Part shown: piece by piece, positions 9,851 to 34,849 of the stretch | Position numbering within the stretch: the first letter of the stretch is position 1 | How the letters are laid out: each line of letters begins with the position of its first letter | Source of the DNA: a virus | Direction: 5' to 3' (one strand) | Length of the DNA stretch: 35,601 bases | IMG/VR virus record: IMGVR_UViG_3300005467_000029 | Location: 1-35,601 of that record | Made by a program: the position numbers and the translations under genes | Notes under the pieces: model-generated | Seen by the model: the letters and a program-made list of their open reading frames with translations, nothing else | Databases searched by the model: none | Told to the model about the DNA's origin: nothing

Positions 9851-11488
9851 CTACTGGATGGTCGTGCCAGCGCCGTAGGAGTTCTTGATCCTGCGGATCC
9901 AGGCATTGCCGGCCGGGTAGTACCCGATCAGCGCGCCATACGCGATGACCGAGTTGCGGTAGTTGACATCGATGACCGGCCAGTCGATGCCCAGGTAGTC
10001 TTGGACCAGCATCATTTCCCAGACGTTGGGAATGTTGCTATTCGGGAACGGAAGAGTGCGGCTCAAGAGGGCGAGGCTGCCCGCCTTGAACCACGGCTCG
10101 ACGTTGAGCGGCATGATCAGGTTGTTGGCGGGGTTGAGGATGCCGCTGACGGTCAGGCCGAGCGTCTCGCCGACGGTCGTGTTCGCGTTGTCGAGGACGA
10201 CGCGGTAGCCGGAGGCGTTGGTGCCGTTGTTGAGGACCTGGTCCTTGATGCGCTGGCGGATGCGCGCCGTGGTCCAGGCCTCCTGGAGGAAGACCTTGAA
10301 GTTGTCGAAGCGGTCGACGCAGGCGTTGTCGATGTCGGCCAGCGACAGATCGGTGTCGAGAGCCTTGTTGTAGAAGCTCGAGTCGGCGTCCAGGGTACGG
10401 AACACACCCAGGAAGTCGTTTGCGCTATTGGTCGTGTCCACGGTGGGAACCGTCGCGCCCGTGGTGGGCAGCGCGCCGGCGAGCTCGAAGAGCTTGTAGC
10501 CGGTCGTGCCCGCGAAGAAGCGCGAGCCATCACCAGGGTCGGCGGCCCCGGTCGAGACATAGATGTTGAAGGCCTCCGCCTGGCCGTTCGTGGTCGCCGG
10601 CGTGATGGTGACCAGCACGTCCTGGGCGCCGGAGGGCGCCGCCGACTGTGCCGCCGAGCCTGCGGACTCGCCGATCATGGTCACCTGGGTGGCCTTGACG
10701 AAGACGTTGGTCGTGACGCCGGTCAGGGCCGCGAAGCCCGTCGACGGCGTCTGCGCGGCCACCGCGATGGTGGGCGCACCGAGGGCCGCCGTGCGGCCGG
10801 ACCACAGCATGCGGTCCTCGCCCATCATCATCGCCTGCAGGGTGCTGAGCGCGGCCAGCTCGCGCAGGTCCTGGAAGCCGCGGGCTGCGAACTGAGCGAT
10901 CATCGACGCGCTGGAGCCGAGACCCAGGGCCGCGAAGTTGGTCGTGGCGTCGGCTGCCGCGTAGACGATTTCCGGAGGCAGGTTCAGCGTGACGCCGTTC
11001 TGCGTCAGCTGAGGCAGCTCCGCCATGGAGATGCGAAGGTTGCCCACGCCTCCCTGGCCGGAGTTCGAGATGCCCTGGATGACCTTGTAGTGCACGGCGG
11101 TGCCGATACCGTCGGTCCGAGGCATCGAGTTGCGAAACGGCGAGAGGACGGGGAACGTCTTCTTGGCGGGGACCTGGAGGTAGTACATCGCCAAGCTCGT
11201 CGACAGCGGCGAGGTCAGCGTGATCTCCTTGCCCATGTCCGCCAGGACTTTCTGGATGGCGATCAGGTCTGAGGCGATCCCAGACGATCCCATCAGCGCT
11301 CCGACCAGCGGCCGGAGGGGCGGGGCGATCGTCTTTTCGACGTCCGCCATCGGGGTTTTGAAGGCTGAGCGGTAGGCCTCTTCGGCCTCGACGAGGAGGG
11401 TGGCCTTTTCGACGTGCTCACCGAAGACTCGGGAGGCGTCGTCCAGCACGCCGACCTTCGCCAGCTCAGCGCCGAGCGGGGTTCTCAT
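9851..11488 (-). CDS. Major capsid protein (HK97-fold)
   Basis: 545 residues, ATG at 11486-11488 preceded by AAGGAG. The helical N-terminal 90 residues (about 1-75, EKATLLVEAEEAYRSAF) resemble a delta or scaffold-like segment; beyond that comes a long Ala/Thr/Gly-rich beta region (about 245-360) that may be an inserted surface domain, then a C-terminal capsid-like part with VFLQEAWTTARIRQRIK and YPAGNAWIRRIKNSYG. Being upstream of the terminator, downstream of the protease-scaffold gene, and the largest head gene apart from the portal supports the call. The family is typically 300-400 residues, so this is a long version. Confidence comes mainly from order and composition. Confidence 0.8.
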   Translation of the reverse strand: MRTPLGAELAKVGVLDDASRVFGEHVEKATLLVEAEEAYRSAFKTPMADVEKTIAPPLRPLVGALMGSSGIASDLIAIQKVLADMGKEITLTSPLSTSLAMYYLQVPAKKTFPVLSPFRNSMPRTDGIGTAVHYKVIQGISNSGQGGVGNLRISMAELPQLTQNGVTLNLPPEIVYAAADATTNFAALGLGSSASMIAQFAARGFQDLRELAALSTLQAMMMGEDRMLWSGRTAALGAPTIAVAAQTPSTGFAALTGVTTNVFVKATQVTMIGESAGSAAQSAAPSGAQDVLVTITPATTNGQAEAFNIYVSTGAADPGDGSRFFAGTTGYKLFELAGALPTTGATVPTVDTTNSANDFLGVFRTLDADSSFYNKALDTDLSLADIDNACVDRFDNFKVFLQEAWTTARIRQRIKDQVLNNGTNASGYRVVLDNANTTVGETLGLTVSGILNPANNLIMPLNVEPWFKAGSLALLSRTLPFPNSNIPNVWEMMLVQDYLGIDWPVIDVNYRNSVIAYGALIGYYPAGNAWIRRIKNSYGAGTTIQ

Positions 11489-11527: not shown

Positions 11528-12913
11528 CTATTCGGCGATGCCGTGCTTGGTCTTGAGCTTCGCCAGGACGCGGCGCGCCGACTGCGAGACCGCGACGTCG
11601 TCGCTCTTGGTCATCTCGGCGTACTTGTTCATCTCGGCGAGCACCTCGATGGGCACATCGCTGGGATCGACCACCGAATTGACCGGATGCGACTTCTCGA
11701 TCGCGCGCAGGCCTGCCGCTTCCGGATTGATGACCGGACCGCCGGGCTGAGCACGCTTGCCGAGCGTCTCGACCGTCTTCTCGAGCTCCTTGGCGGCGAA
11801 TGCGTCGCTGAGCACCTCTTTGAGCACCTGGGTGTGCTCCTTCAGGAGCTCTGGCAGCATTGCCTTGAGCTTGTCAGGGACGATGACGGACTTGACCTCA
11901 TCCTCGGTTACGAACTTCGTCTCGGGAACGACGACGGCGGGCTTGACGGGTTCGACGAGTTCGCTGATGACGGGCCTGCCCGAGAGCTTCTCGCCATCGG
12001 GCTCAGCCACTTTGGGTTCATCGGGGATGGCGATCTTTGCCTTGTGATCCTCGGCGGCCTTCTTCAGTGCCTCGCTGACGCTCTTGTAGAGGCCACGGCG
12101 CATCGCCTTGTCAGTGAGGGCCGCCATCTCAACGACCATCGTTGAGTATGCCTCGTCCGCCTCAGACCAGATGAAGCCATCGAGCGCCTGTAGCGCATCG
12201 ATGAGGTAGCGGAGTTGATACGTATTGCCGGACTCGGCCTCGCCCGCCTCTTGAGCGATGAGCTGGCGGATGGCGGCGCGAGCCGCTTCGAGAGGGGCGT
12301 TGTGAATCGCCTCGTCGCCGGTCAGTGCCTTTTCGGTTTCGGCGACGGACTCGGACGTCTTCTCTTCATCAGGCTCAGCGACTTTGTCGGTATCGGTCTC
12401 GCTGAACTCACCGAGCTCCTCGCCGACCTCGATCGCTGAGTCCGCTGCCTTTGCGACTGTGAGCACCGAATCGGGATTCGCCGGCCGGTCCGCGAGCGAG
12501 ATCTCTACCCACGAGCCTCCGACGATGCGGCCGTTCGGGGCCTGAGCGTCCTTGATGACCTTGATGGGGTTGCCCGGGACGCTCTTCGCGCCGAACGAGA
12601 AGCCGGTGTAGATCTTCTCGTCGAGCTTTGCGATGGCGACCGGATCCACCACCTTGGCCGTGAGGCTGATGGTCTTGTTCGGATCGTCAAGCTGGAGGTC
12701 CAGACCCTTTCCGACGGCATTCCGTGAATGCTGCTCGCGGACGTTTGCGATGTCGAACCACGCCTGAGCTTCCTTCTTCGCCCAGCCGTAGTCGGCGATC
12801 TGACCATCCAGGTCGAGCCGCTCGGTCGAGACCGTGCCGGTGACCAGGCGGTGCCCCTCCGGGGTCTTGTCGACCTTGACGATGGGGAGAAAGAAGCTGG
12901 CGATTTTGGACAT
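11528..12913 (-). CDS. Prohead protease fused to scaffold (XkdF/U35-like)
   Basis: 461 residues; ATG at 12911-12913 with AGGAGG upstream. Residues 1-150 are a herpes/HK97-type serine protease: TGTVSTERLDLDGQI, QHS with catalytic His62, TGFSFGAK with catalytic Ser106, and WVEISLADRPANP, the signature end of XkdF-like domains. The remaining 300 residues are helical, Glu/Lys/Ala-rich, with conspicuous A-E-P-D-E repeats (160-190 and 305-320) and a final helix MTKSDDVAVSQSARRVLAKLK. This is the layout of a fused scaffold. The protease would release itself and cleave scaffold and capsid precursor during head maturation. It lies immediately upstream of the capsid gene. Confidence 0.85.
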   Translation of the reverse strand: MSKIASFFLPIVKVDKTPEGHRLVTGTVSTERLDLDGQIADYGWAKKEAQAWFDIANVREQHSRNAVGKGLDLQLDDPNKTISLTAKVVDPVAIAKLDEKIYTGFSFGAKSVPGNPIKVIKDAQAPNGRIVGGSWVEISLADRPANPDSVLTVAKAADSAIEVGEELGEFSETDTDKVAEPDEEKTSESVAETEKALTGDEAIHNAPLEAARAAIRQLIAQEAGEAESGNTYQLRYLIDALQALDGFIWSEADEAYSTMVVEMAALTDKAMRRGLYKSVSEALKKAAEDHKAKIAIPDEPKVAEPDGEKLSGRPVISELVEPVKPAVVVPETKFVTEDEVKSVIVPDKLKAMLPELLKEHTQVLKEVLSDAFAAKELEKTVETLGKRAQPGGPVINPEAAGLRAIEKSHPVNSVVDPSDVPIEVLAEMNKYAEMTKSDDVAVSQSARRVLAKLKTKHGIAE

Positions 12914-13971: not shown

Positions 13972-14394
13972 CTATTGCATCGTGGTGGTGAGTTGGTCGA
14001 TGTTGAAGGAAAACGTGTCGCCGGCGACGATATTCTGGACCGGGCTCAGCTGGCCGAAGCCAAGGAAGTTGCCGCCCGACGCCGCGTCGTAAAGGACCAC
14101 GTAGGTGACATTTCCCCAGCCGACGCCGGTCGCTTGCGCGAAGGCCACCGCGAGTACGTTCGACTGCCGCTCGCCGGTGGGTGGCTGTCCTGGCGTCGTG
14201 TGCCAGTGAGATGTGTCGTTGGTGACCGCGACCCGCCCATATCCATTCGCCGCTGAGGGCTCGGTGACATTGGTGCCGTCCGGGTTCGGCGTCGTCGTCG
14301 ACAAGCCGACGAAGATAGTCGCCGGGGGGGTGAACGCGGTGTTTCCGAAGATCAGCTGGTTCAGTTTGTTGAGCAGATAGTTAGAGAAGGCCAC
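13972..14394 (-). CDS. Phage structural protein with head-fibre/decoration-type fold
   Basis: 140 residues, GTG start at 14392-14394, three bases after the portal TAG. The opening MAFSNYLLNKLNQLIFGNTA followed by PATIFVGLSTTTPN and, later, NGYGRVAVTND and VTYVVLYDAASGGNFLGFGQL is a pattern I recognise from a widespread family of short phage structural proteins found beside head genes. The C-terminus ends in beta strands (GDTFSFNIDQL). Its precise location in the virion is not settled, and decoration or fibre function is inferred. Confidence 0.65.
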   Translation of the reverse strand: MAFSNYLLNKLNQLIFGNTAFTPPATIFVGLSTTTPNPDGTNVTEPSAANGYGRVAVTNDTSHWHTTPGQPPTGERQSNVLAVAFAQATGVGWGNVTYVVLYDAASGGNFLGFGQLSPVQNIVAGDTFSFNIDQLTTTMQ

Positions 14395-14397
14395 GGC

Positions 14398-17241
14398 CTA
14401 CTCAAGCTCGATCTTGGTGACCTTACCGTCGGGCATGGTGATCTTCTTGGTCTTCGGCTCGGCGGGCATCTCGAGGTGTACATCGACCTGCGCCGGCGGT
14501 GGAGCTGCCACCTGGACATTGGGCGCAGCCACGTGGTTGTGGATCACAGGCGCCGGCGGCTGCGGCCGATTCGCCAGCGCATGAATGCTCTCAGCCAGTA
14601 CGACCGCGTCCGATTTCGGAGCGTCGGCGACAACCGCCCGCTGAAGTGCCTCACCGAAGGCGGCGCGGATCTCATCTGGCCGCGCTGCCCTGGTCAGAGC
14701 TGCGGTCAGGCCAACCTTGACGCCTGGCGGGATGGCAGCCGACTCGAAAGGCACCGCCGGAGACCGGCGCGCCTTGAAGGCCTTCAACGCCTTGGTCTGC
14801 CACTTCCGGAGATCATCGAAGAGCGACTTCTTGCTCTTCTCGTCGTCGACCTCTTCGGCATATTCGTCGGGAATGCCCCACTTGCCGTCTTCCTTGGCGA
14901 AGACCATGAAGCCGCCCGGCCCGACCTCGTCCTCTGAAACCAGCGTCTCTGTGTTGACCTTGGTGCCTTTCATGCCGGCATCGAACCAGGCCTGTGCGGC
15001 TCGCTGGTTGCGCATGTGGGAGACAATCACCACGAACTGGTCCGGTGCTTTCTCCGCATCAGCGAAGGCGTCCTTGAGAGCGGGGATATAACGCTCGAGG
15101 AAGTCGTTGTAGGACTCTCCGCCTGGCGCCGCTTTGTCCGGCTTCTCAGTCATCAGCTCGATGATCTGGTCGAGTGAGTCCTGGACCGGTTTCCCCTGGA
15201 AATCGCCGAGGTTCCATGGCTTGAACCGCTCATCCACGGTCGCCTCGACGTCGACCACCTTGGCGATCGCCTCCGCGGTATCGCAGCTGCGCTTGAGGTC
15301 GCTGCAGTAGAGCTTTGCAACCGCGGCGCCCTTGAAACCTGCGGCGAGCTGCTTGGCGTCCTTCTTGCCCTGGGCTGAGAGGTCGGGATCCAGCCAGCCG
15401 CGCAGCAGGCCTTCCTCGTTGTTCTTGGTGGATCCGTGCCGACACAGGATGACTGTCGGGACCTTTGCGGTCGCCTCGATCACGCGACGGAGCGCGTCTG
15501 AATCGAGGTTGAGGACGTTGCTCTTCGGATCACGCAGCGTCGACTCATTCGCCTTCTCCAGCTGAGCGACCTTGGTGGCATCGCCTGGGGGTGGCGCAGT
15601 GCCGCCCGGATTTGCGAGCGGATCGTCGTCCGGTTTCTCAGCCGCCCTGCTACGGCTGGCGCCGGTGAAACTCTTGCCTCCAGCTGCCGGGCTCAACGGC
15701 GAACCATCACGATTCAGGCCAGCCAGCTGTTTCGACACGGCGTCGATGTCCTTGAGCAGGACGGGGCCCTGGCGGGTGACGACGATCAGCTCGTTTGCGT
15801 TGGGTTCGTTGCTCGGCGGCAAGCCAAGCTCACCACGGTGCTCATTTGAGGTTTTCGTCGCGTTCTGAAATTCGATCTGGAACTGCTGCGCTTTCTTGAC
15901 CGCGTCCTCGATCTCATCGAAGAGGAAACGGAAGATCAGGTCCGGGCTCTTCAGCCAGGTGGCGAGGACTTCGTTGTTGATGACCTCAATCCACCCTGTG
16001 ATCGGACGCAGCGATTTGCGGTAGAGGACGTTCTCTTGCTGTTCACTCCAGCCCGTGCCACCGAGGCCTGACTTGGGATCCAGCCCGAGCTCGGTCGGGG
16101 TGACGTCGAAACCGATGCAAGTGATCTTGGCCAACCATTCGTCGAAGAGCACGACGCCCGTGCCTTCTCCGACCAGCGGACGCAGTTGGGTGAATGGACC
16201 AGGCGAGAACTTCACCCGGTGCTTCCAGGCCATGTCGCCCGCGAGCATCGAGTTCCAGGTTTCTTCGGCCTCGTGCCACTGCTTGGCGTCCCACTCCTCC
16301 GGAACCTCAACGAGGCCCGCGGGGAGCGTGCCCTCAGTGAAATAGGAGGTCCAGTACTGCTGGCGCTTCAGCGCGAGGTTGACGTTGACGATGATCTGCT
16401 CGATGTTTGAGAAGCCATATGGACTGTCTGAGCTCGGGTTGTAAATCTCGTAGTAGAGCTCGTCGCCAGCGAAGTACGGCTTGATGAGGACGTCGTCCTG
16501 CGCCATCGGTGCGCCGGCCAGGTCGAGGGATGTCGAGTCGGCGAGCATCTCGGCGCGCGGGATCCCGTAGAGGATCTGCTGGTACGCCGGAAGCGGTGGC
16601 ATTGGCCTGGCGCCGCGGATGTCCAGGAGCGGCTTGATCGTCGTGCCGTCGAGGATTTCGAGAGCGAACAGATCGGATCCGTTCGCACCTTTGCCGGGCA
16701 ACCAGGTCGGGTGCGGATAGATGGCCAGGGCGTCGACGACGAAGACTTCCTCGAGCAGCGTCTTGATCCAACCGTCCCAGCGACGACCATTGATCCGATC
16801 GGGATACTCGAAGAACGCGGTCAGCGCCTTCTGCCGATCTGGCTCGAGCTTCTGCTCGGGGTCGCGCGGCGTGATCTCCCAGCGCATCGAAGCAACCTCT
16901 TGCCGACGGATCTCGATGCAGCGGCGCGCAATGTCGTAGACCTTGGCCAGCATCCGGAGCGTTCGGAAGTCGACGAGCTTGGTCGATCCAGGCGTAACGC
17001 TGAGGTTGGTGCCGACTGGATACTGCCAACGCCTCGGCATCGAAACGCCGCGACGAGCCGGATCGAGCGGCTGCGCCGGTAGCGGCACGCCCGGGCCCAT
17101 CGAGCCCATCCACGGGTTCTCACCGGGCGCTGGTGCGAGTGAGCCAGCCGCGAGCAGCTGCGCCTGCGCCGTCATGTCACGGGTCGGCGCGCCCGGGTTC
17201 CAGTTGGCGAGCGCCTTCTTGTACTCGGCAGCCAGCGTCAC
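14398..17241 (-). CDS. Portal protein with an inserted histidine-phosphatase (phosphoglycerate-mutase-like) domain
   Basis: 947 residues, far above the 400-550 usual for portals; GTG start overlapping the previous stop (GTGA). Residues about 70-500 are the portal core (YDIARRCIEIRRQEVASMRWEI would be over-long to quote in full; key parts are RCIEIRRQEV 107-116, PYGFSNIEQII 274-284, PTELGLD 382-388). A Pro/Gly/Ser linker (505-590) leads into residues 595-785: VILCRHGST with R601-H602-G603, SDLKR with R651 and the TA of DTAEAI, PWNLGDFQG, GGESYNDFLER, and VSHMRN with H742. These are the phosphate-pocket residues of the histidine phosphatase superfamily. The usual proton-donor Glu of mutases appears replaced by Pro675, so a phosphatase is likelier than a mutase. 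The end (FDDLRKWQTKALKAFK, VPFESAAIPPGV) matches the conserved C-terminal tail of long portals, so the enzyme sits inside the protein instead of being added to its end. Confidence 0.9.
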   Translation of the reverse strand: MTLAAEYKKALANWNPGAPTRDMTAQAQLLAAGSLAPAPGENPWMGSMGPGVPLPAQPLDPARRGVSMPRRWQYPVGTNLSVTPGSTKLVDFRTLRMLAKVYDIARRCIEIRRQEVASMRWEITPRDPEQKLEPDRQKALTAFFEYPDRINGRRWDGWIKTLLEEVFVVDALAIYPHPTWLPGKGANGSDLFALEILDGTTIKPLLDIRGARPMPPLPAYQQILYGIPRAEMLADSTSLDLAGAPMAQDDVLIKPYFAGDELYYEIYNPSSDSPYGFSNIEQIIVNVNLALKRQQYWTSYFTEGTLPAGLVEVPEEWDAKQWHEAEETWNSMLAGDMAWKHRVKFSPGPFTQLRPLVGEGTGVVLFDEWLAKITCIGFDVTPTELGLDPKSGLGGTGWSEQQENVLYRKSLRPITGWIEVINNEVLATWLKSPDLIFRFLFDEIEDAVKKAQQFQIEFQNATKTSNEHRGELGLPPSNEPNANELIVVTRQGPVLLKDIDAVSKQLAGLNRDGSPLSPAAGGKSFTGASRSRAAEKPDDDPLANPGGTAPPPGDATKVAQLEKANESTLRDPKSNVLNLDSDALRRVIEATAKVPTVILCRHGSTKNNEEGLLRGWLDPDLSAQGKKDAKQLAAGFKGAAVAKLYCSDLKRSCDTAEAIAKVVDVEATVDERFKPWNLGDFQGKPVQDSLDQIIELMTEKPDKAAPGGESYNDFLERYIPALKDAFADAEKAPDQFVVIVSHMRNQRAAQAWFDAGMKGTKVNTETLVSEDEVGPGGFMVFAKEDGKWGIPDEYAEEVDDEKSKKSLFDDLRKWQTKALKAFKARRSPAVPFESAAIPPGVKVGLTAALTRAARPDEIRAAFGEALQRAVVADAPKSDAVVLAESIHALANRPQPPAPVIHNHVAAPNVQVAAPPPAQVDVHLEMPAEPKTKKITMPDGKVTKIELE

Positions 17242-17710: not shown

Positions 17711-17951
17711 CACTGTCAGTCGTTGCCTCCTCGATTGCCTTGAACAGCTGCGGCCGCGGGAAGTACTTCGTGCGCTCGATGCGGGTCCGAGCGCGCCGCC
17801 GGCCAGCGCCATCAAGGCCAAATTCGTAACGGATCTCGCGCTCTTCGACGAACGGACAGACCGTCAAGAATGGGTGGGGTAGACCGCAGATCCCGCAGCG
17901 AAGCTCCTCCATCTGGCGGTCTTTCGGAGTCAGCTTCGGTGTCTCGCTCAC
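17613..17951 (-). CDS. Small zinc-binding protein between terminase and portal
   Basis: 112 residues, GTG start overlapping the terminase stop (GTGA). The N-terminal half holds CGICGLPHPFLTVCPFV (C-x2-C-x-x-P-H-x6-C), a small metal site, followed by EEREIRYEFGLDG and a basic helix with TKYFPRPQLFKAIEEA. From about residue 80 the sequence turns into Arg/Ala/Gly repeats that look like out-of-frame reading, exactly where the 44-residue peptide gene begins in a different frame. The functional protein may be only the first 75-80 residues, or the true product may shift frame. No named family. Confidence 0.6.
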   Translation of the reverse strand: MSETPKLTPKDRQMEELRCGICGLPHPFLTVCPFVEEREIRYEFGLDGAGRRRARTRIERTKYFPRPQLFKAIEEATTDSDAAPSRDAAAPAAGRRRVRGPGRRAAGNRTPS

Positions 17952-19645
17952 TTGCTGACCTCCGCTGCTCGCTTGTCGCTGATGTAGTCGAGGAAGCCCT
18001 GGTTCTTCTTCTCAGGCACACGGAGGACCTGGTCGAGCGCCATGATCGCGGCAACGATTCCGTCAATACGATCGGCCGAGGCCTTCTTGTCGGGTCGGAT
18101 GTTGCCGTTGATGTCGGAGCGGGTGACGGTGTTGTTCGCCATCCACTTCACAACCGGATTTCCATCGTGCCGCAGCCTCTTCGCGATCACGAGGCGCTGG
18201 AGTTCCTTGGTCGGATCCGTCAATCGGGTCAGCGTCTGCGGAACCTCGATCATCTCGAAGCCGTCCTGCTTGAGCTGCCCCACCAGCTGGGTCGCATTCC
18301 AAGGGTCGAAGCCCATCTGCTTCAAGCGGGGCAACCGAGCGCGCCACTCGCCGATGTCCTTGCGCATCCGGTCGTAGTCAGTTACATCGCCGTCCGTCGC
18401 GGTAATGAAGCCTTGCTTGACCCATTGGCGATAGGGCACGCGGTCGCGACGCTCGCGCTCGGCGATGCCTTCCTTCGGTACCCAGAAATGCCAGGCGAAG
18501 GAATAGGTCCCGTCGTCCTCGGGGAAGACCAGCGCCATGCCGGCAAGGTCGGTTGTCGAGCTCAGGTCGAGGCCGCCGAAGACTGCATGAGCCTTCAGCG
18601 CACCAAGATCGACCGAGGCAGCGCAGGCTGCCCACTCATCGGGCTTGAGGTACTTCGCCCCATCCATCGAGGTCCGGATCCCGAGATGGAGGCGGAGGAA
18701 CTTCGCTTGGTCGGTCGGTGACTGGCGCGCCTCGAGCGCGGCCGACTCCATGAATGCGCGGGTGGGCGATATGCCGTAGCCGGGGTTGGCCTTCTTCCAT
18801 GTCCGCTCGACGAACGGATCGTCATCCTCATCGGCGGCCCAGATCACGCCGTAGACGGTGGGATCCTCAAGTACGCCGGCGGCGAGGTCCTCGAGACGTT
18901 CGCGACGCTTGGCGTAGATCGTCTCCGGCCGCCCATCGTCTGCGGTGGTGATCACCACGATCAGCGGCTGCCGCCGCGAGCCGGTGCCCGACTCGACCGC
19001 GTGCAGCAGGTCGGGCTTCTTGTGGACGTGGAGCTCGTCGACGATCGCGCCATGGACGTTGGCGCCGTGCATCAGATCGGCCACGCTGGCCACCACCGCG
19101 AAGAAGCTGGCGGTCCGCGGGTGCACGATGCGATTGGCGAGTGCTCGCACGTGGGGCTTCAGAGCTGGCGCCTGCTCGGCGAGCGCCTTCACCGGGTCGA
19201 AGCAGAATCGGGCCTGGTCCTTGCCAGCGGCGAGCGCATATACCTGCGCACCGGGCTCGTCGTCAGCAGTCGTCAGGTCGATCGCGATTCCGCCGGCGGT
19301 CGTCGTCTTGCCGTTCTTACGCGGCACGTCCATCGTGGCGCGCCGGATGATTCGGACGAGCTGGCCATGGTCGTCCTCGCGGACCCAGCCAAAGACCGGA
19401 GCGATGAAGTAGGCGACCTGCCATGGATCCGGCTTCAGCGGCCGCCCGGCCCACTCACCCTGGGTGTGCCGCAGATGCGAGAAAACTCTCAGCACGTGGT
19501 CGACTCGAGCGGGATCGAACTTCGCCCTGTCGGCGCCGACTGGCTCCGGGGTCTTTATCTTCGGCGGGCAGTCCGGGAACGGGATGCCGCGGGTCTTGAG
19601 AAACCAGCGGACCTCTTCCGAGATGCGCGGATCGATTCGGCGCAC
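17948..19645 (-). CDS. terL: Terminase large subunit (DNA packaging ATPase-nuclease)
   Basis: 565 residues, GTG start three bases after the small-terminase TAA. ATPase: Walker A VPRKNGKT at 107-114, a deviant form usual in the Terminase_1 group, and Walker B IVDE with D203-E204. Linked motif VITTA at 231-235 fits the coupling motif. Nuclease: FGGLDLSSTTDL with D360, FDPWNA with D447, and RIDGIVAAIMAL with D528, the three acidic positions of the RNase-H-like domain. The enzyme cuts concatemers and pumps DNA through the portal. Complete length and all motifs present, so it is expected to be functional. Followed by small genes and the portal in one coupled operon. Confidence 0.96.
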   Translation of the reverse strand: MRRIDPRISEEVRWFLKTRGIPFPDCPPKIKTPEPVGADRAKFDPARVDHVLRVFSHLRHTQGEWAGRPLKPDPWQVAYFIAPVFGWVREDDHGQLVRIIRRATMDVPRKNGKTTTAGGIAIDLTTADDEPGAQVYALAAGKDQARFCFDPVKALAEQAPALKPHVRALANRIVHPRTASFFAVVASVADLMHGANVHGAIVDELHVHKKPDLLHAVESGTGSRRQPLIVVITTADDGRPETIYAKRRERLEDLAAGVLEDPTVYGVIWAADEDDDPFVERTWKKANPGYGISPTRAFMESAALEARQSPTDQAKFLRLHLGIRTSMDGAKYLKPDEWAACAASVDLGALKAHAVFGGLDLSSTTDLAGMALVFPEDDGTYSFAWHFWVPKEGIAERERRDRVPYRQWVKQGFITATDGDVTDYDRMRKDIGEWRARLPRLKQMGFDPWNATQLVGQLKQDGFEMIEVPQTLTRLTDPTKELQRLVIAKRLRHDGNPVVKWMANNTVTRSDINGNIRPDKKASADRIDGIVAAIMALDQVLRVPEKKNQGFLDYISDKRAAEVSK

Positions 19646-26543: not shown

Positions 26544-27034
26544 GTCGTTCGCGCAACCTGGTCTGGCCGCGGCGCGATGAACTGGTCGGCCCACCCGGTC
26601 CATTTGAATGGCTCGGCGTCATATTCAGGCGTGCCGACTGCGTCAGATGGATCCCACACCATGTGATCCCGGTACATGACGACGACGTGCCATTCACCCG
26701 GAAGCCGCTTGCTCTCGACCGTCGCTAACCAGTAGCCGGGTAGCACGAATCCCGAGAGGTCGCCTACGGAGATCCACTTGCCGTCGGCGCCAATGAGCAA
26801 TTGATCATCGCCGCGAAGGAACTGGTGCATCCAGAGCTCAAGGTGATAGCCCTGCTTGCGCAGCCACCCGTTGGCAAGGTCGAGGTGGTAATAACCCGTC
26901 TGGCCTTCGATCTGGACGAAATGCGGTACCTCCTCGTACTCGCGCTCGAGCACGCTGGCGATGCAGCACTTGAAGCAGTCGCCGGGATTCCCGTCTTCCT
27001 TCGTGCCGAGCATGCGCTGCTGGATCCTCTTCAC
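26540..27034 (-). CDS. Papain-fold (C39-like) cysteine protease
   Basis: 164 residues; GTG at 27032-27034 overlaps the HerA-like gene stop. Start of the domain is NPGDCFKCCIASVLE with a nucleophile candidate C20 on a helix, then VPHF, a GYHLELW strand, GYWLATVESKRLPGEWHVVVM with H116, and VWDPS with D128. The Cys-His-Asp order and the H-V-V-x...D-P motif fit the C39/BtrH-like papain fold. Peptidase or amide-transfer activity is expected; its target is unknown. Known phages carry similar genes in early regions without a defined role. Confidence 0.65.
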   Translation of the reverse strand: MKRIQQRMLGTKEDGNPGDCFKCCIASVLEREYEEVPHFVQIEGQTGYYHLDLANGWLRKQGYHLELWMHQFLRGDDQLLIGADGKWISVGDLSGFVLPGYWLATVESKRLPGEWHVVVMYRDHMVWDPSDAVGTPEYDAEPFKWTGWADQFIAPRPDQVARTT

Positions 27035-28830
27035 GAGATCGCCTCCATAAAGGAGTCAGGCACGCGCCGCGCACCACTCTCAACCAGGCCGAGCTTTCGG
27101 AGCTTCGAGAGGATTACGCCCATCGTCGAGGCGTCAGGTGAGTAGCCGGTCCGCTCGCAAAGCTCCTGGTGGCTCAGAGCGTCCGGATACGCATCGATCA
27201 GAGCGCGCAGCACCTTGCGCTCGCCCTCTCCGATGCGCGGATGCCGCAGCCAATGCTCGAGGAGCTCCGGACCGCTTGGAAGCTCCTGAACCCCGCCGGC
27301 GGCCGCCAGGCCTGCGTCCGTCGCCCTGACAGGCTGGCCAGGCTCGACAAGCCCAGACCGCCGCAGATTAGAAAGGATGACGCCGAGCGTCGAGGCCTTG
27401 GCTGAGTAGCCGGCGAGGAAGGCCACGTCCTTCTGTGCGCGCCCATCCGGCCACTGCGACAAGACGGCGAGCACCTTGCGCTCACCGACGCCGAGCTTCA
27501 GGTCATCTGGCACCGTTTGGTGACCATTTGGTGCCACCGGAGGGACAGGCTGCGCCTCACCCGCAGGACGTGGAGCATTCGCGCGCCGGAGGTCCACGCG
27601 CTCAGCTGCCATGCCTGCGCCGGCCCCTACAGCCGGCTGCACGGCCCGTCCCTTCAGCGGGGCGGTACGGTTCTCGCTCTTCGTTCGGATCGACTGCGCG
27701 AGCTCAGTGATCAGGTCCGCCTCATTCTTGATGGCGATCGCGCGTCCGATAACCGCGCGGATTTGCTTCTCATCGACCGGCACTGGCACGAGGCGCTCGA
27801 CGATCTTCTCGACCTCGCGGACCTCGACCTGAGGCTTTGCATCTTTGATGCGTTGCTGCAGCTGGCGCTCGAGCTCCTGGATCCGCTTGCGTAGCTCGCG
27901 CGGGTCGTCAGCCTTCTGCTTCTCTCGTGCGGCCGCCATCGCTTCGCCGAGCTGCTCGAGGTCGACCGCGGCCAGCACAGGTTTGATGACCTTGTGGCCG
28001 GCAGTGATTTCAGTGGTCGTCGTGTCCAGCGTGTTCCGGTAGCGGAACTTGAGGCGCTGCAGGGATGGATCCGCGTCGGGCTGATAGAAGTAGGCGGTCC
28101 CGACCGGCAGCTTGGCAAGGTGGGTGAGGATCTCCTTGCGAACGTCCTCTGGCGCGTTCTCGCCCAGGTATTCCTGCATGGCCTTGCGGTCCTGGGTACC
28201 GACGATCTGGAAGAAGGCAGTGATGTCGGCGCCGTTGCGGAGGTCGGTGTGCATCTTGGCCGGCCGCCTGGTCGCGGCGATGAAGCCGATCCAGTAGTTG
28301 CGGCCCACGGTGTAGAGCCGCTTCATGGCGCCGAGCATTTCCTCCTCACCCTTTCCAGGGGAAAGTGGGACGTACTCGTGTGCCTCCTCGAGCATTAACA
28401 CCCGGGCGCTGCCTCGCTGCTCCTTCTCAGGCCCGCGCCGGTAAAGCTGATTGGCAAAGTCGGTCATGAACCTCGTCCGCTGGCCACCGGTCCAGGGCTG
28501 AGTGACGATGACCATGTAGAGGCCGCGGTCGAGGAAGAGGTCAGCCAGGAGCGCCCCGTTCTCGGGATAGATGGGGACGTCGGCGTGGAGGCCACCGAAG
28601 ACGATGAAGGGCAGGCCTGCGCTCTTACCGTCGCGGGCACTCTTAATGCCGTAATGAATGTCGGCCGGGTCGACGATGCAGGTTGGGATGCCCGCGGCAT
28701 AGAGCTCCTCGGCGAGCACCACCTCAAGGTTGGACTTGCCGGATCCGCCCTTGCCAAACAGCAGAAAGGTCTTATTGGCGACGCCGATGGGCAGTGCCAG
28801 GTCAGGCGAGATACGCAGGACCTTGCTCAC
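27031..28830 (-). CDS. HerA/FtsK-like P-loop ATPase with two C-terminal winged helices
   Basis: 599 residues; GTG at 28828-28830 overlaps the upstream TGA (GTGA). Walker A GKGGSGKS at 26-33, Walker B VLMLEEAH at 144-151, followed by arginine-finger-like RLYTVGRNYW and ATRRPA (a T-R motif after strand 4, as in HerA). A coiled-coil helix with many Gln/Lys/Glu is at about 296-350, and a Pro/Ala linker at 395-440. Two similar winged-helix modules end the chain, 448-498 (GERKVLAVLSQW, YSAKASTLGVILSNLRRSGLV) and 535-586 (GERKVLRALIDAY, YSPDASTMGVILSKLRKLGLV). HerA proteins are hexameric DNA translocases. The NurA nuclease partner is not present nearby. Confidence 0.82.
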   Translation of the reverse strand: MSKVLRISPDLALPIGVANKTFLLFGKGGSGKSNLEVVLAEELYAAGIPTCIVDPADIHYGIKSARDGKSAGLPFIVFGGLHADVPIYPENGALLADLFLDRGLYMVIVTQPWTGGQRTRFMTDFANQLYRRGPEKEQRGSARVLMLEEAHEYVPLSPGKGEEEMLGAMKRLYTVGRNYWIGFIAATRRPAKMHTDLRNGADITAFFQIVGTQDRKAMQEYLGENAPEDVRKEILTHLAKLPVGTAYFYQPDADPSLQRLKFRYRNTLDTTTTEITAGHKVIKPVLAAVDLEQLGEAMAAAREKQKADDPRELRKRIQELERQLQQRIKDAKPQVEVREVEKIVERLVPVPVDEKQIRAVIGRAIAIKNEADLITELAQSIRTKSENRTAPLKGRAVQPAVGAGAGMAAERVDLRRANAPRPAGEAQPVPPVAPNGHQTVPDDLKLGVGERKVLAVLSQWPDGRAQKDVAFLAGYSAKASTLGVILSNLRRSGLVEPGQPVRATDAGLAAAGGVQELPSGPELLEHWLRHPRIGEGERKVLRALIDAYPDALSHQELCERTGYSPDASTMGVILSKLRKLGLVESGARRVPDSFMEAIS

Positions 28831-29021
28831 TTCGCAGCCTCGCAACCGCGAAGGTCGAAATAGTCGACCTGCACGAGCTTGCCGTCCTCAGTCTTGACGC
28901 GGCAGCTGTCGTCGGCGAGGTGCTCAAGCGTGCCAACGAGCTCGCGATCGCCGCGCAGCTGAAGGCGCACATCCATGCCAAGAAAGGTTCGAAGCAGCCG
29001 TTGCCAGAAGGATTCGGTCAT
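28827..29021 (-). CDS. Small Sm/SH3-like protein
   Basis: 64 residues; ATG 29019-29021 overlapping the upstream stop (ATGA). After a short helix (ESFWQRLLRTFLG) the core is five strands: MDVRLQLRGDREL, VGTLEHLADDSC, RVKTEDGKLVQVDYFDL. The D-V-x-L-x-L-x-G-x-x-x-x-G-x-L pattern recalls Sm-like barrels, which bind RNA. The assignment is by pattern only. Confidence 0.5.
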   Translation of the reverse strand: MTESFWQRLLRTFLGMDVRLQLRGDRELVGTLEHLADDSCRVKTEDGKLVQVDYFDLRGCEAAK

Positions 29022-33053: not shown

Positions 33054-34082
33054 TCAGGCCTTCTCGTTCAGGTGCTCACAGGTGAGCCCGCATTGCGTCT
33101 GATGCTCATGGTTGATTCGTGCGGTCAGCGCGTCGACGCTGGACGTTTTGAGCAACGCGAGGATCCGCTTCTCATCCTTCATCACTGCCAGTGGCTTCGG
33201 CAGGGCAGTGGCAAGCCAGATCAATCTGGCTATAGCCTCCTCTGAGTTCTGCGCCGCAGCTGGCGGCTGTGCGGCTGCCGGCTGAGCAACTGCACGTGGC
33301 TGGCCCTCGTCCCTCGAATCAGCCGGATCTTCCTGGCCGTCCTCGATGTCCTGAGTGAAGATGTCAGAGCAGCCAGTGGCGACGAGCGTGGCCGCGACCA
33401 TCGCGCGCTTGTCGGCCATCTTCAGGATCGTGTTCGCCTGATCGGCGACGTCCTTGTTAGCGACCTGGCCGACTTCCTGCTTGGTTATGCGAGAGTCGTC
33501 ATCCGTGAATTTCTCTCCGCAACCACCCTTCTTCTTCCAGCAGAGCCAGCCGCCACCGAACTCTGCCTTGCCGCGAATGATGGTTGCCTCGCCGCATTCA
33601 GGACATACGCGCGCGGCATTGCGGTAGCGGTACTTTTTTTCCCAGCTGGAGCAGCTGCCCTCAGCCCGAGCAATGAAGACTCGGTCCTCGGGATTCGGTC
33701 CCACCTGGCGCCAGATGATGCAGGCGCGACGGTACTGAATGAAGGGTTCCCCGCCATGGTGTTCGCCGGTCCAGTCCTCCGCCGGCGGCGCCGCATCGAT
33801 CAATTCCGGACGCAACCCCATCGAGGACAAGAGCAGCTCCGCACCAGGCTTGAGCAATGCTGGCTTATCACCGGTGCCGGGGATGACGCCGTAGTGCTCA
33901 TCTTTGCGCATCACCCGATCCATGAATTCGCGCTTCTGCTTGACGACCTCGACTGCATCGTCGACGCTGATCGCAAAGCGCGGAGTCCATTCCTGAATCG
34001 CCGTACCGTTGACCGGCTTCAGTGCCAGCGTGCCCCTTGTTTCAGCCCCCACGACCTCCCCCTCTAATGCCTCGTCGGTCAT
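33054..34082 (-). CDS. Conserved phage zinc-binding protein, candidate recombination factor
   Basis: 342 residues; ATG 34080-34082 overlaps the preceding stop (ATGA). The motif order KDEHYGVIPGTGDKPALLKPGA, GSCSSWEKKYRYR, CPECGEATIIRGKAEF and NTILKMADKRAMVAATL is a family I recognise as widespread in phages and prophages. Zinc ligands C160, C163, C181, C188. A Pro/Ala/Gln linker (about 258-282) is followed by a helical C-terminus. The family has no settled function; adjacency to a PD-(D/E)XK nuclease suggests an annealing or DNA-binding role in recombination. That is inference only. Confidence 0.75.
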   Translation of the reverse strand: MTDEALEGEVVGAETRGTLALKPVNGTAIQEWTPRFAISVDDAVEVVKQKREFMDRVMRKDEHYGVIPGTGDKPALLKPGAELLLSSMGLRPELIDAAPPAEDWTGEHHGGEPFIQYRRACIIWRQVGPNPEDRVFIARAEGSCSSWEKKYRYRNAARVCPECGEATIIRGKAEFGGGWLCWKKKGGCGEKFTDDDSRITKQEVGQVANKDVADQANTILKMADKRAMVAATLVATGCSDIFTQDIEDGQEDPADSRDEGQPRAVAQPAAAQPPAAAQNSEEAIARLIWLATALPKPLAVMKDEKRILALLKTSSVDALTARINHEHQTQCGLTCEHLNEKA

Positions 34083-34849
34083 GCGGCCTCCTGGCCGCAA
34101 GCAATCATCCGGTCGAGCAGGTCGAGAGCGCTGGCCTGCATCTCTGCGCGGAGGTCTTTCAGCAGCTCGTCGTAGCCCGGCCGCATTTCGGCGTACACGA
34201 AGCTGTACGTGGCGTCGTACACGCTCTGATTCGCTGGCTTGTTCTTGATCGCCTCGACGATCTTGGGAGCAAGGTCGGCTGCCCCGGCTGCCCCGGCTGC
34301 CCCGGCTGCCCCGGCTGCCCCGGCTGCCCCGGCTGCCCCGGCTGCCCCGGCTACTAACAAGTTCCGAAGCTTCTCTGCGAGCTGCGCTCGCCGATCGCTT
34401 CGGAACTTGTAGGCCACGTCCGCTGCGCTTCTCAGAGCATCGCGCGCGGCAATCGAGGTCTCCGTGTTGACGACCTGGAGCAGCTGCTCCAGGCGTTCCG
34501 CTTCCTCGGTCCAACCGGCACGCCGGAATGCCTTCGGCACGGCAACCCGGGTGCACCAATCAGCCGCCAGGTATGCCCGGCGCCGCTCGACTTCCTTGGG
34601 AGCAGCCGTCCCGACCAGCTTGACGATGTAGGGTTTGAGCATCTGACGGTCGGTGTCGTTCAGCGAATCGTTCCAGCGCCGCATGAAGGCGGCAATCACG
34701 CGGCTCGTGCACTTCGGCGAGTCCGACCAGTCCTCGCCGGCGACATAGGCGACAGCCTCCATCACGCAGAACTGCGAGTCAGGCTGATGTGAACCCTTGA
34801 GCAGGACCAGCTTCTCGAGGTCGAGGTCGCGCACGATCGTCGTGGTCAT
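34079..34849 (-). CDS. Conserved phage protein with an (Gly-Ala-Ala)8 linker
   Basis: 256 residues, ATG 34847-34849 just after the upstream TAA. Opening MTTTIVRDLDLEKLVLLKGSH followed by CVMEAVAYVAGEDWSD and VIAAFMRRWNDSL is a pattern I recall in actinobacterial and phage proteins of unknown function. Residues about 168-191 are eight Gly-Ala-Ala units made by a tandem DNA repeat; they divide the protein into a main domain and a C-terminal helical part (YDELLKDLRAEM). Cys100 and His21 sit near the family-conserved patches. The linker length could vary between isolates. Confidence 0.7.
   Translation of the reverse strand: MTTTIVRDLDLEKLVLLKGSHQPDSQFCVMEAVAYVAGEDWSDSPKCTSRVIAAFMRRWNDSLNDTDRQMLKPYIVKLVGTAAPKEVERRRAYLAADWCTRVAVPKAFRRAGWTEEAERLEQLLQVVNTETSIAARDALRSAADVAYKFRSDRRAQLAEKLRNLLVAGAAGAAGAAGAAGAAGAAGAAGAADLAPKIVEAIKNKPANQSVYDATYSFVYAEMRPGYDELLKDLRAEMQASALDLLDRMIACGQEAA
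34277..34348. repeat. Tandem repeat, 8 perfect copies of a 9-bp unit (GGCTGCCCC)
   Basis: Eight identical 9-bp copies with no mismatch, followed by a partial GGCT. The unit length keeps frame and encodes Gly-Ala-Ala on the minus strand. Perfect identity at synonymous positions means recent expansion by slippage or a constraint on the DNA itself. No spacers, so not a CRISPR array. Confidence 0.9.
34357..34410. repeat. Perfect 14-bp inverted repeat around a 26-base spacer
   Basis: ACAAGTTCCGAAGC (34357-34370) and GCTTCGGAACTTGT (34397-34410) are exact reverse complements. The left arm starts nine bases after the 9-bp tandem repeat ends. Both arms encode protein (the chain around residues 148-165), so it could be chance, but a 14-bp perfect match at this spacing is unusual. 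Possible RNA hairpin or site for a protein dimer. Confidence 0.7.

What the first reader, a model, noticed from the sequence alone, without database searches (positions are those of the whole stretch)
14398..17241. Portal protein with a complete histidine-phosphatase domain spliced into it
Seen: residues 595-785 of a 947-residue portal contain all hallmarks of the histidine phosphatase superfamily: R601-H602-G603, R651 in SDLKR, GGESYNDF, and H742 in VSHMRN. The portal core lies before it and the conserved portal C-terminal tail (FDDLRKWQTKALKAFK ... VPFESAAIPPG) lies after it, joined by linkers, so it is an insertion. Known: the superfamily uses the RHG histidine as a phosphoryl acceptor; portals are 12-mers, so each virion would carry 12 copies. 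Inferred: an enzyme displayed by the portal, on the capsid-inner crown if the portal C-terminus is arranged as in known portals. It might act on nucleotides, phosphoproteins or host signalling molecules during assembly or entry. I know of no described phage system of this kind.
Basis: partly seen in the sequence, partly recalled or inferred. Interest (0 to 1): 0.9.

Follow-up and report, generated by a model that had tools for sequence, protein, structure and literature searches.

The report
Phage portal carrying a built-in phosphatase
The ring protein through which this virus packs its DNA carries a complete phosphatase domain; the domain belongs to a phage-enriched family attached many times independently to portal and capsid-protease proteins, which suggests phages load the enzyme into their heads to act on the host.

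Summary
The minus-strand ORF at 14398-17241 is a 947-aa portal. Residues 597-751 match the histidine phosphatase superfamily (PF00300, E=2.9e-33), and a confident model matches solved histidine phosphatases. It is not a misassembly: a second contig (L002, 79% identical) has the same fusion with the active-site residues kept. A third relative (L009) reads straight from the linker into the start of the tail motif, so the domain is an insertion. In other members of this portal family, including cultured Arthrobacter phages, a NUDIX hydrolase sits in the same slot.

The domain belongs to a phage-enriched subfamily (motifs W-N-x-G, GGES[FY]N): 80 or more IMG/VR loci, about one convincing locus in 84,980 prokaryote genomes. 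It is fused to three portal families and, repeatedly, to XkdF-type prohead proteases. Nearly all members lack the Glu that serves as proton donor in PhoE, while the nucleophile His and second Arg are invariant.

Portal-fused enzymes (2H, NUDIX, InPase, PBECR) were already predicted as injected effectors; the histidine phosphatase is an undescribed addition as far as I could find. Best reading: a head-loaded effector dephosphorylating a small host molecule. Substrate and delivery are untested. New variant of a known kind.

The parts
14398..17241 (-). portal-histidine phosphatase fusion gene, 947 aa, GTG start
15727..16974 (-). portal core (about residues 90-505)
   Evidence: PF04860 105-472 and PHROG 2662 67-578; solved portal by profile and fold
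15460..15726 (-). flexible Pro/Asp-rich linker before the domain (residues 506-594); 63% identical to L002
   Evidence: pLDDT 33-37 for residues 521-580
14872..15459 (-). histidine phosphatase domain (residues about 595-790)
   Evidence: PF00300 597-751 E=2.9e-33; AF2 pLDDT above 90 over most of the domain; Foldseek to solved histidine phosphatases
15433..15441 (-). R601-H602-G603, nucleophile motif; His in 46/46 representatives, Arg in 41/46
15289..15291 (-). R651, second phosphate-binding Arg, 46/46
15211..15219 (-). P675-W676-N677: subfamily motif at the position of the PhoE proton-donor Glu; Pro 27, Thr 11, Glu only 2 of 46
15112..15123 (-). GGES 707-710, subfamily motif (also part of the search pattern)
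15016..15018 (-). H742, second His, 42/46
14638..14829 (-). conserved tail after the insertion (LRKW..KALK ... PFESAAIPPG, residues about 805-868)
   Evidence: 81% identical to L002 over 806-877; start of the motif seen in L009; counterpart in NUDIX-bearing portals
17948..19645 (-). terminase large subunit, upstream in the same direction
   Evidence: phrog_9 E=1.1e-155
13972..14394 (-). small head protein directly after the portal
   Evidence: phrog_240 E=3.4e-20
11528..12913 (-). probable head maturation protease
   Evidence: weak phrog_9427 E=1e-3 and position
9851..11488 (-). probable major capsid protein, assigned by position only
   Evidence: phrog_13692, unknown function, E=3e-64

Best explanation
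SHOWN by sequence: a phage-enriched subfamily of branch-1 histidine phosphatases is inserted in this portal between core and tail motif, and homologues are independently attached to other portal families and to prohead proteases. INFERRED: fusion to proteins that are built into the inner side of the capsid loads the phosphatase into each virion. It is then delivered with the DNA, after release from the portal by head-protease cleavage in the flexible linkers, or acts from the portal at entry. There it dephosphorylates a small nucleotide-like or metabolite phosphate of the host, for example a defence or stress signal, through a phosphohistidine at H602. The NUDIX hydrolase found in the same slot of sister portals suggests that the slot holds interchangeable small-molecule phosphohydrolases.
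For: Domain and fold. Independent conserved copy. Empty site. Purifying selection on the domain (dN/dS about 0.27 against 0.07 for the core, NG86). Fusions to PF04860, PF06381 and PF06074 portals and to XkdF PF14550; portal label needs four changes on the tree. One fusion to a protein with polyvalent-protein domains (LPD23, IrrE-like peptidase). Solo genes beside terminase, portal, head-tail adaptor and major head genes. NUDIX in the same slot: in 11 of 28 records the only NUDIX match lies in a portal-sized frame. Portal, MuF and protease fusions of other nucleotide enzymes were predicted injected (PMC9503650, PMC5512222). Prohead proteases can cut portals: SPN3US gp81 loses a 254-residue propeptide (PMC10052503). 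Phage enrichment.
Against: The portal itself is not known to be ejected, and no cleavage site was shown. The proton-donor Glu of PhoE is replaced (Pro675). A few members also lack the first Arg or second His. About 12 copies per virion is few. No substrate evidence exists: no close match to a family of known substrate (all NCBIfam phosphatase hits far below cut-off). Solo copies near packaging genes may simply be late-expressed enzymes.
Confidence: 0.42

Rival explanations
1. Assembly-phase enzyme: the phosphatase works in the infected cell or the procapsid, acting on a phosphoprotein, terminase-associated nucleotide or metabolite during head assembly or packaging, and is not delivered to the next host.
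For: Linkage to terminase, portal, protease and head genes; fusion to prohead protease, a transient assembly component.
Against: Sporadic: among 28 searched relatives of this portal only L002 has it; replaced by NUDIX or nothing in sister portals.
Confidence: 0.25
2. Pseudoenzyme or binding module: with the PhoE-type acid lost, the pocket binds phosphate groups (DNA backbone, nucleotide or phosphoprotein) without turnover.
For: Pro or Thr at the PhoE Glu position in 38 of 46 representatives, Glu in only 2; some members lack the first Arg or the second His.
Against: Nucleophile His and second Arg invariant in 46/46; proton donors vary across the superfamily (PMC12051542); the motif W-N-x-G is itself conserved, as expected if catalysis was re-tooled.
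Confidence: 0.2
3. Neutral or recently acquired passenger domain tolerated in a disordered linker.
For: Linkers are predicted disordered and the domain diverges faster than the core; empty-site relative.
Against: dN/dS about 0.27 and all active-site residues kept against L002; GC similar to the core; repeated attachment of the same subfamily to head proteins.
Confidence: 0.08

Closest known systems
Phage polyvalent proteins and portal/MuF-fused effectors (2H, PBECR, InPase; Iyer et al. 2017, PMC5512222)
   Same: Enzyme domain fused to portal, MuF or other head proteins; predicted packaged and injected
   Different: No histidine phosphatase described there (word 'phosphatase' absent); here a single enzyme in the portal, no second effector found
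NudE-like NUDIX fused to MuF, portal or capsid protease (PMC9503650; compare Arthrobacter phages Mufasa8 and Sonali)
   Same: Same portal family and same slot between core and tail motif in Mufasa8, Sonali, L033, L034, L036; phosphohydrolase class
   Different: Different fold and chemistry (metal-dependent NUDIX against metal-free phosphohistidine); those portals also carry a C-terminal MuF domain that the window portal lacks
PhoE / CobC / glucosyl-3-phosphoglycerate phosphatase (branch-1 histidine phosphatases)
   Same: Fold, RHG, second Arg, second His; best profile match PhoE 1ebb/1h2e E about 5e-26, best fold match 4qih
   Different: Proton-donor Glu replaced by Pro or Thr; W-N-x-G motif; fused to head proteins; scores far below curated cut-offs for CobC and all other NCBIfam phosphatase models

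Membership tests
Histidine phosphatase superfamily, branch 1 (PF00300) | profile match over the curated cut-off | tested here: met
   115.6 bits against 21.7
Histidine phosphatase superfamily, branch 1 (PF00300) | catalytic His in RHG plus second Arg and second His | tested here: met
   R601 H602 R651 H742; conserved in L002
Histidine phosphatase superfamily, branch 1 (PF00300) | acidic proton donor at the PhoE Glu position (varies between families of the superfamily, so not strictly defining) | tested here: not met
   Pro675; proton donors are reported to vary between families, so this does not exclude membership
Histidine phosphatase superfamily, branch 1 (PF00300) | fold | tested here: met
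   AF2 model; Foldseek E about 1e-13, TM 0.75-0.81 by target length for the best matches
Histidine phosphatase superfamily, branch 1 (PF00300) | enzymatic activity | not testable with these tools
   needs assay
Phage portal protein | sequence and fold match, next to the terminase gene | tested here: met
   PF04860 itself just under its cut-off (37.8 against 39.1)
alpha-ribazole phosphatase CobC (TIGR03162) | score above equivalog cut-off | tested here: not met
   78.2 against 162.9 bits
Polyvalent / portal-fused injected effectors | enzyme domain fused to a virion head protein | tested here: met
Polyvalent / portal-fused injected effectors | two or more disparate effector activities in one polypeptide (polyvalent proteins proper) | tested here: not met
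   one enzyme only in the window portal; met in relatives L048 and L055
Polyvalent / portal-fused injected effectors | packaged in the virion and injected | not testable with these tools
   needs proteomics or delivery assay

The most novel reading that the evidence does not exclude
A previously undescribed, phage-enriched histidine phosphatase subfamily with a re-tooled active site is repeatedly docked onto portal and prohead-protease proteins as a modular slot cargo (interchangeable with NUDIX), is packaged in the capsid and disarms a phosphate-bearing host signal at entry.
Probability: 0.3. Interest if true: 0.82.

Novelty: new variant of a known kind. Interest (0 to 1): 0.6.

Why it matters
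If the domain is active, a core structural protein of the virion doubles as an enzyme carrier, and portals have a slot that phages load with different phosphohydrolases. That makes a testable route to find which host phosphate compounds are worth destroying at entry, and it gives a defined subfamily (motifs W-N-x-G and GGES[FY]N) to assay against known nucleotide-signal defences.

Tried and rejected
Assembly error: rejected by L002. Chance motif match: rejected by profile, fold and 46-sequence conservation. CobC or phosphoglycerate mutase identity: scores far below cut-offs. Cultured phages with the same portal-phosphatase fusion: none found in 50,697 phage records; most hits to the domain lie in unannotated short or fragmentary records, and one Pseudomonas phage has a separate gene away from the head genes. 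BFVD viral structures: no portal fusion among the listed matches. First genome-contig scan found nothing; the second found 5 loci, of which only L123 groups with the phage subfamily. Terminase distance test: 12 of 13 within 7 kb, but p about 0.05 under random placement because contigs are short, so weak. The full-length model is of low confidence outside the core and the domain.

Full report
OBSERVATION. The window is an IMG/VR linear virus record of 35.6 kb. The ORF at 14398-17241 lies on the minus strand and reads 947 residues from a GTG. Residues 597-751 match PF00300 at E=2.9e-33; residues 67-578 match PHROG 2662 portal at 2.7e-54; PF04860 matches at 1.7e-9, just under its cut-off. The gene lies in an ordinary head module: terminase large subunit upstream, small head protein, probable protease and probable capsid gene downstream. 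A profile of the portal family reaches a solved portal, 8q7d, at 5.6e-24, and Foldseek of the full-length model puts solved portals first. The phosphatase model is confident (mean pLDDT 85.5 over 276 residues; 94-98 in most ten-residue blocks of the domain) and matches solved histidine phosphatases.

NOT AN ARTEFACT, AND AN INSERTION. Contig L002 from IMG/VR has the same fusion at 79% identity, with R601, H602, G603, R651, P675, W676, N677, E709 and H742 unchanged. dN/dS (NG86) is about 0.07 in the core and 0.27 in the domain: purifying selection on both, with faster change in the domain. L009, 75-78% identical in the core, passes from the linker (..NPEDDPNAEPTDEKAVGE) straight to DLRRWRDKALK, the start of the tail motif, without the domain. 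The contig ends there, so the rest of its tail is unseen.

THE SLOT. In the same portal family, Arthrobacter phages Mufasa8 and Sonali and IMG/VR loci L033, L034, L036 and L038 carry a NUDIX domain between core and a tail motif that aligns, loosely, with that of the window, followed by a MuF region. L013, L020, L028, L029 and L030 carry NUDIX after the MuF-like region. In 11 of 28 records the only NUDIX match of the record lies inside a portal-sized frame, and PF00300 was found only in L002 among those 28. So the C-terminal half of this portal family holds different phosphohydrolases or none.

A PHAGE-ENRICHED SUBFAMILY. A six-sequence profile of the domain found 80 IMG/VR loci, the cap of the tool, and an 11-sequence one found 55, partly the same. 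Two scans of 84,980 genomes gave 5 loci, of which only L123, a 3.7-kb contig of an archaeal MAG, groups with the phage sequences. The patterns differed slightly between collections, so this is a strong contrast and not a calibrated ratio. Among 46 representatives the nucleophile His and the second Arg are invariant, the first Arg is kept in 41 and the second His in 42. The position of the PhoE proton-donor Glu is Pro in 27, Thr in 11 and Glu in only 2; Trp-Asn follows in most. PMC12051542 names the glutamate of PhoE as proton donor/acceptor and states that donors vary across families. The four cellular sequences in the tree set carry Glu there (read by eye). Conservation of GGES, and partly of PWN, is imposed by the search patterns.

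REPEATED FUSION. The subfamily is fused to PF04860 (window, L002), to Phage_portal_3 (L053, L054), to Portal_Mu (L062, L097) and to the XkdF protease PF14550 (L044, L045, L086 and kin; L134 and L157 by phmmer). It is also part of large multidomain proteins such as L055 (LPD23, IrrE-like peptidase) and L048 (radical SAM, GNAT). The tree needs four changes for the portal label, but its deep branches are weak, so I claim several attachments and not a count. Neighbours of 23 solo genes include terminase, several portal families, head-tail adaptors and major head proteins; terminase lies within 7 kb in 12 of 13 records with a match, though short contigs make that weak.

COMPARISON WITH KNOWN SYSTEMS. 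Iyer et al. 2017 (PMC5512222) describe 2H, PBECR and InPase fused to portal or MuF, and PMC9503650 describes NudE-like NUDIX fused to MuF, portal and the capsid protease; both predict packaging and injection. Neither mentions histidine phosphatases, and text searches of the open library found no report of the fusion. Most subscription papers were not searchable. The window is therefore a new variant of a known kind.

MECHANISM. Shown: domain, insertion, conservation, recurrent head-protein fusion. Inferred: packaging, release or display, and action on a small host phosphate compound. Prohead proteases can cut portals, as in SPN3US (PMC10052503), so release is possible, but no cleavage site was shown here. 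I put this reading at about 0.42, assembly-phase action at 0.25 and a non-catalytic binding module at 0.2.

Noticed in passing
L003:2134-5136 (NC_049478.1, Arthrobacter phage Mufasa8 gene 3): Annotated 'MutT/NUDIX hydrolase' but it is the portal with a NUDIX domain inserted and a MuF domain at the end.
   Followed up: yes
L028, L029, L013 portal ORFs: Portals of 1414-1557 aa with MuF-like, NUDIX and further C-terminal regions; L029 also seems to hold a 2H-phosphoesterase-like stretch (by eye only, not profiled).
   Followed up: partly
L044, L045, L102, L113, L120: Subfamily members in which the Arg of RHG is Ser or Glu; L091, L101, L109 and L112 lack the second His: possible inactive or altered versions.
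   Followed up: no
L047:2176-3060: Solo phosphatase between terminase and portal genes with a C-terminal Cys-rich stretch matching an iron oxidase model (NF041615) at 2e-7, below its cut-off.
   Followed up: no
L048:1-9138: 3046-aa protein with radical SAM, GNAT and histidine phosphatase domains.
   Followed up: no
L046:2-3041: Phosphatase at the start of an ORF whose C-terminal part resembles a podovirus portal tail by eye, directly after a probable portal ORF; no Pfam support.
   Followed up: partly
L002:2224-2293: The portal C-terminus of L002 departs from the window after residue 877; either a real difference or a frameshift.
   Followed up: no
34276-34352: Perfect 9-bp tandem repeat (8.6 copies) coding a Gly-Ala-Ala run in the ORF 34079-34849.
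   Followed up: no
27031-28845: A second packaging-like P-loop ATPase with a weak terminase PHROG match (phrog_2666, 1.4e-13).
   Followed up: no
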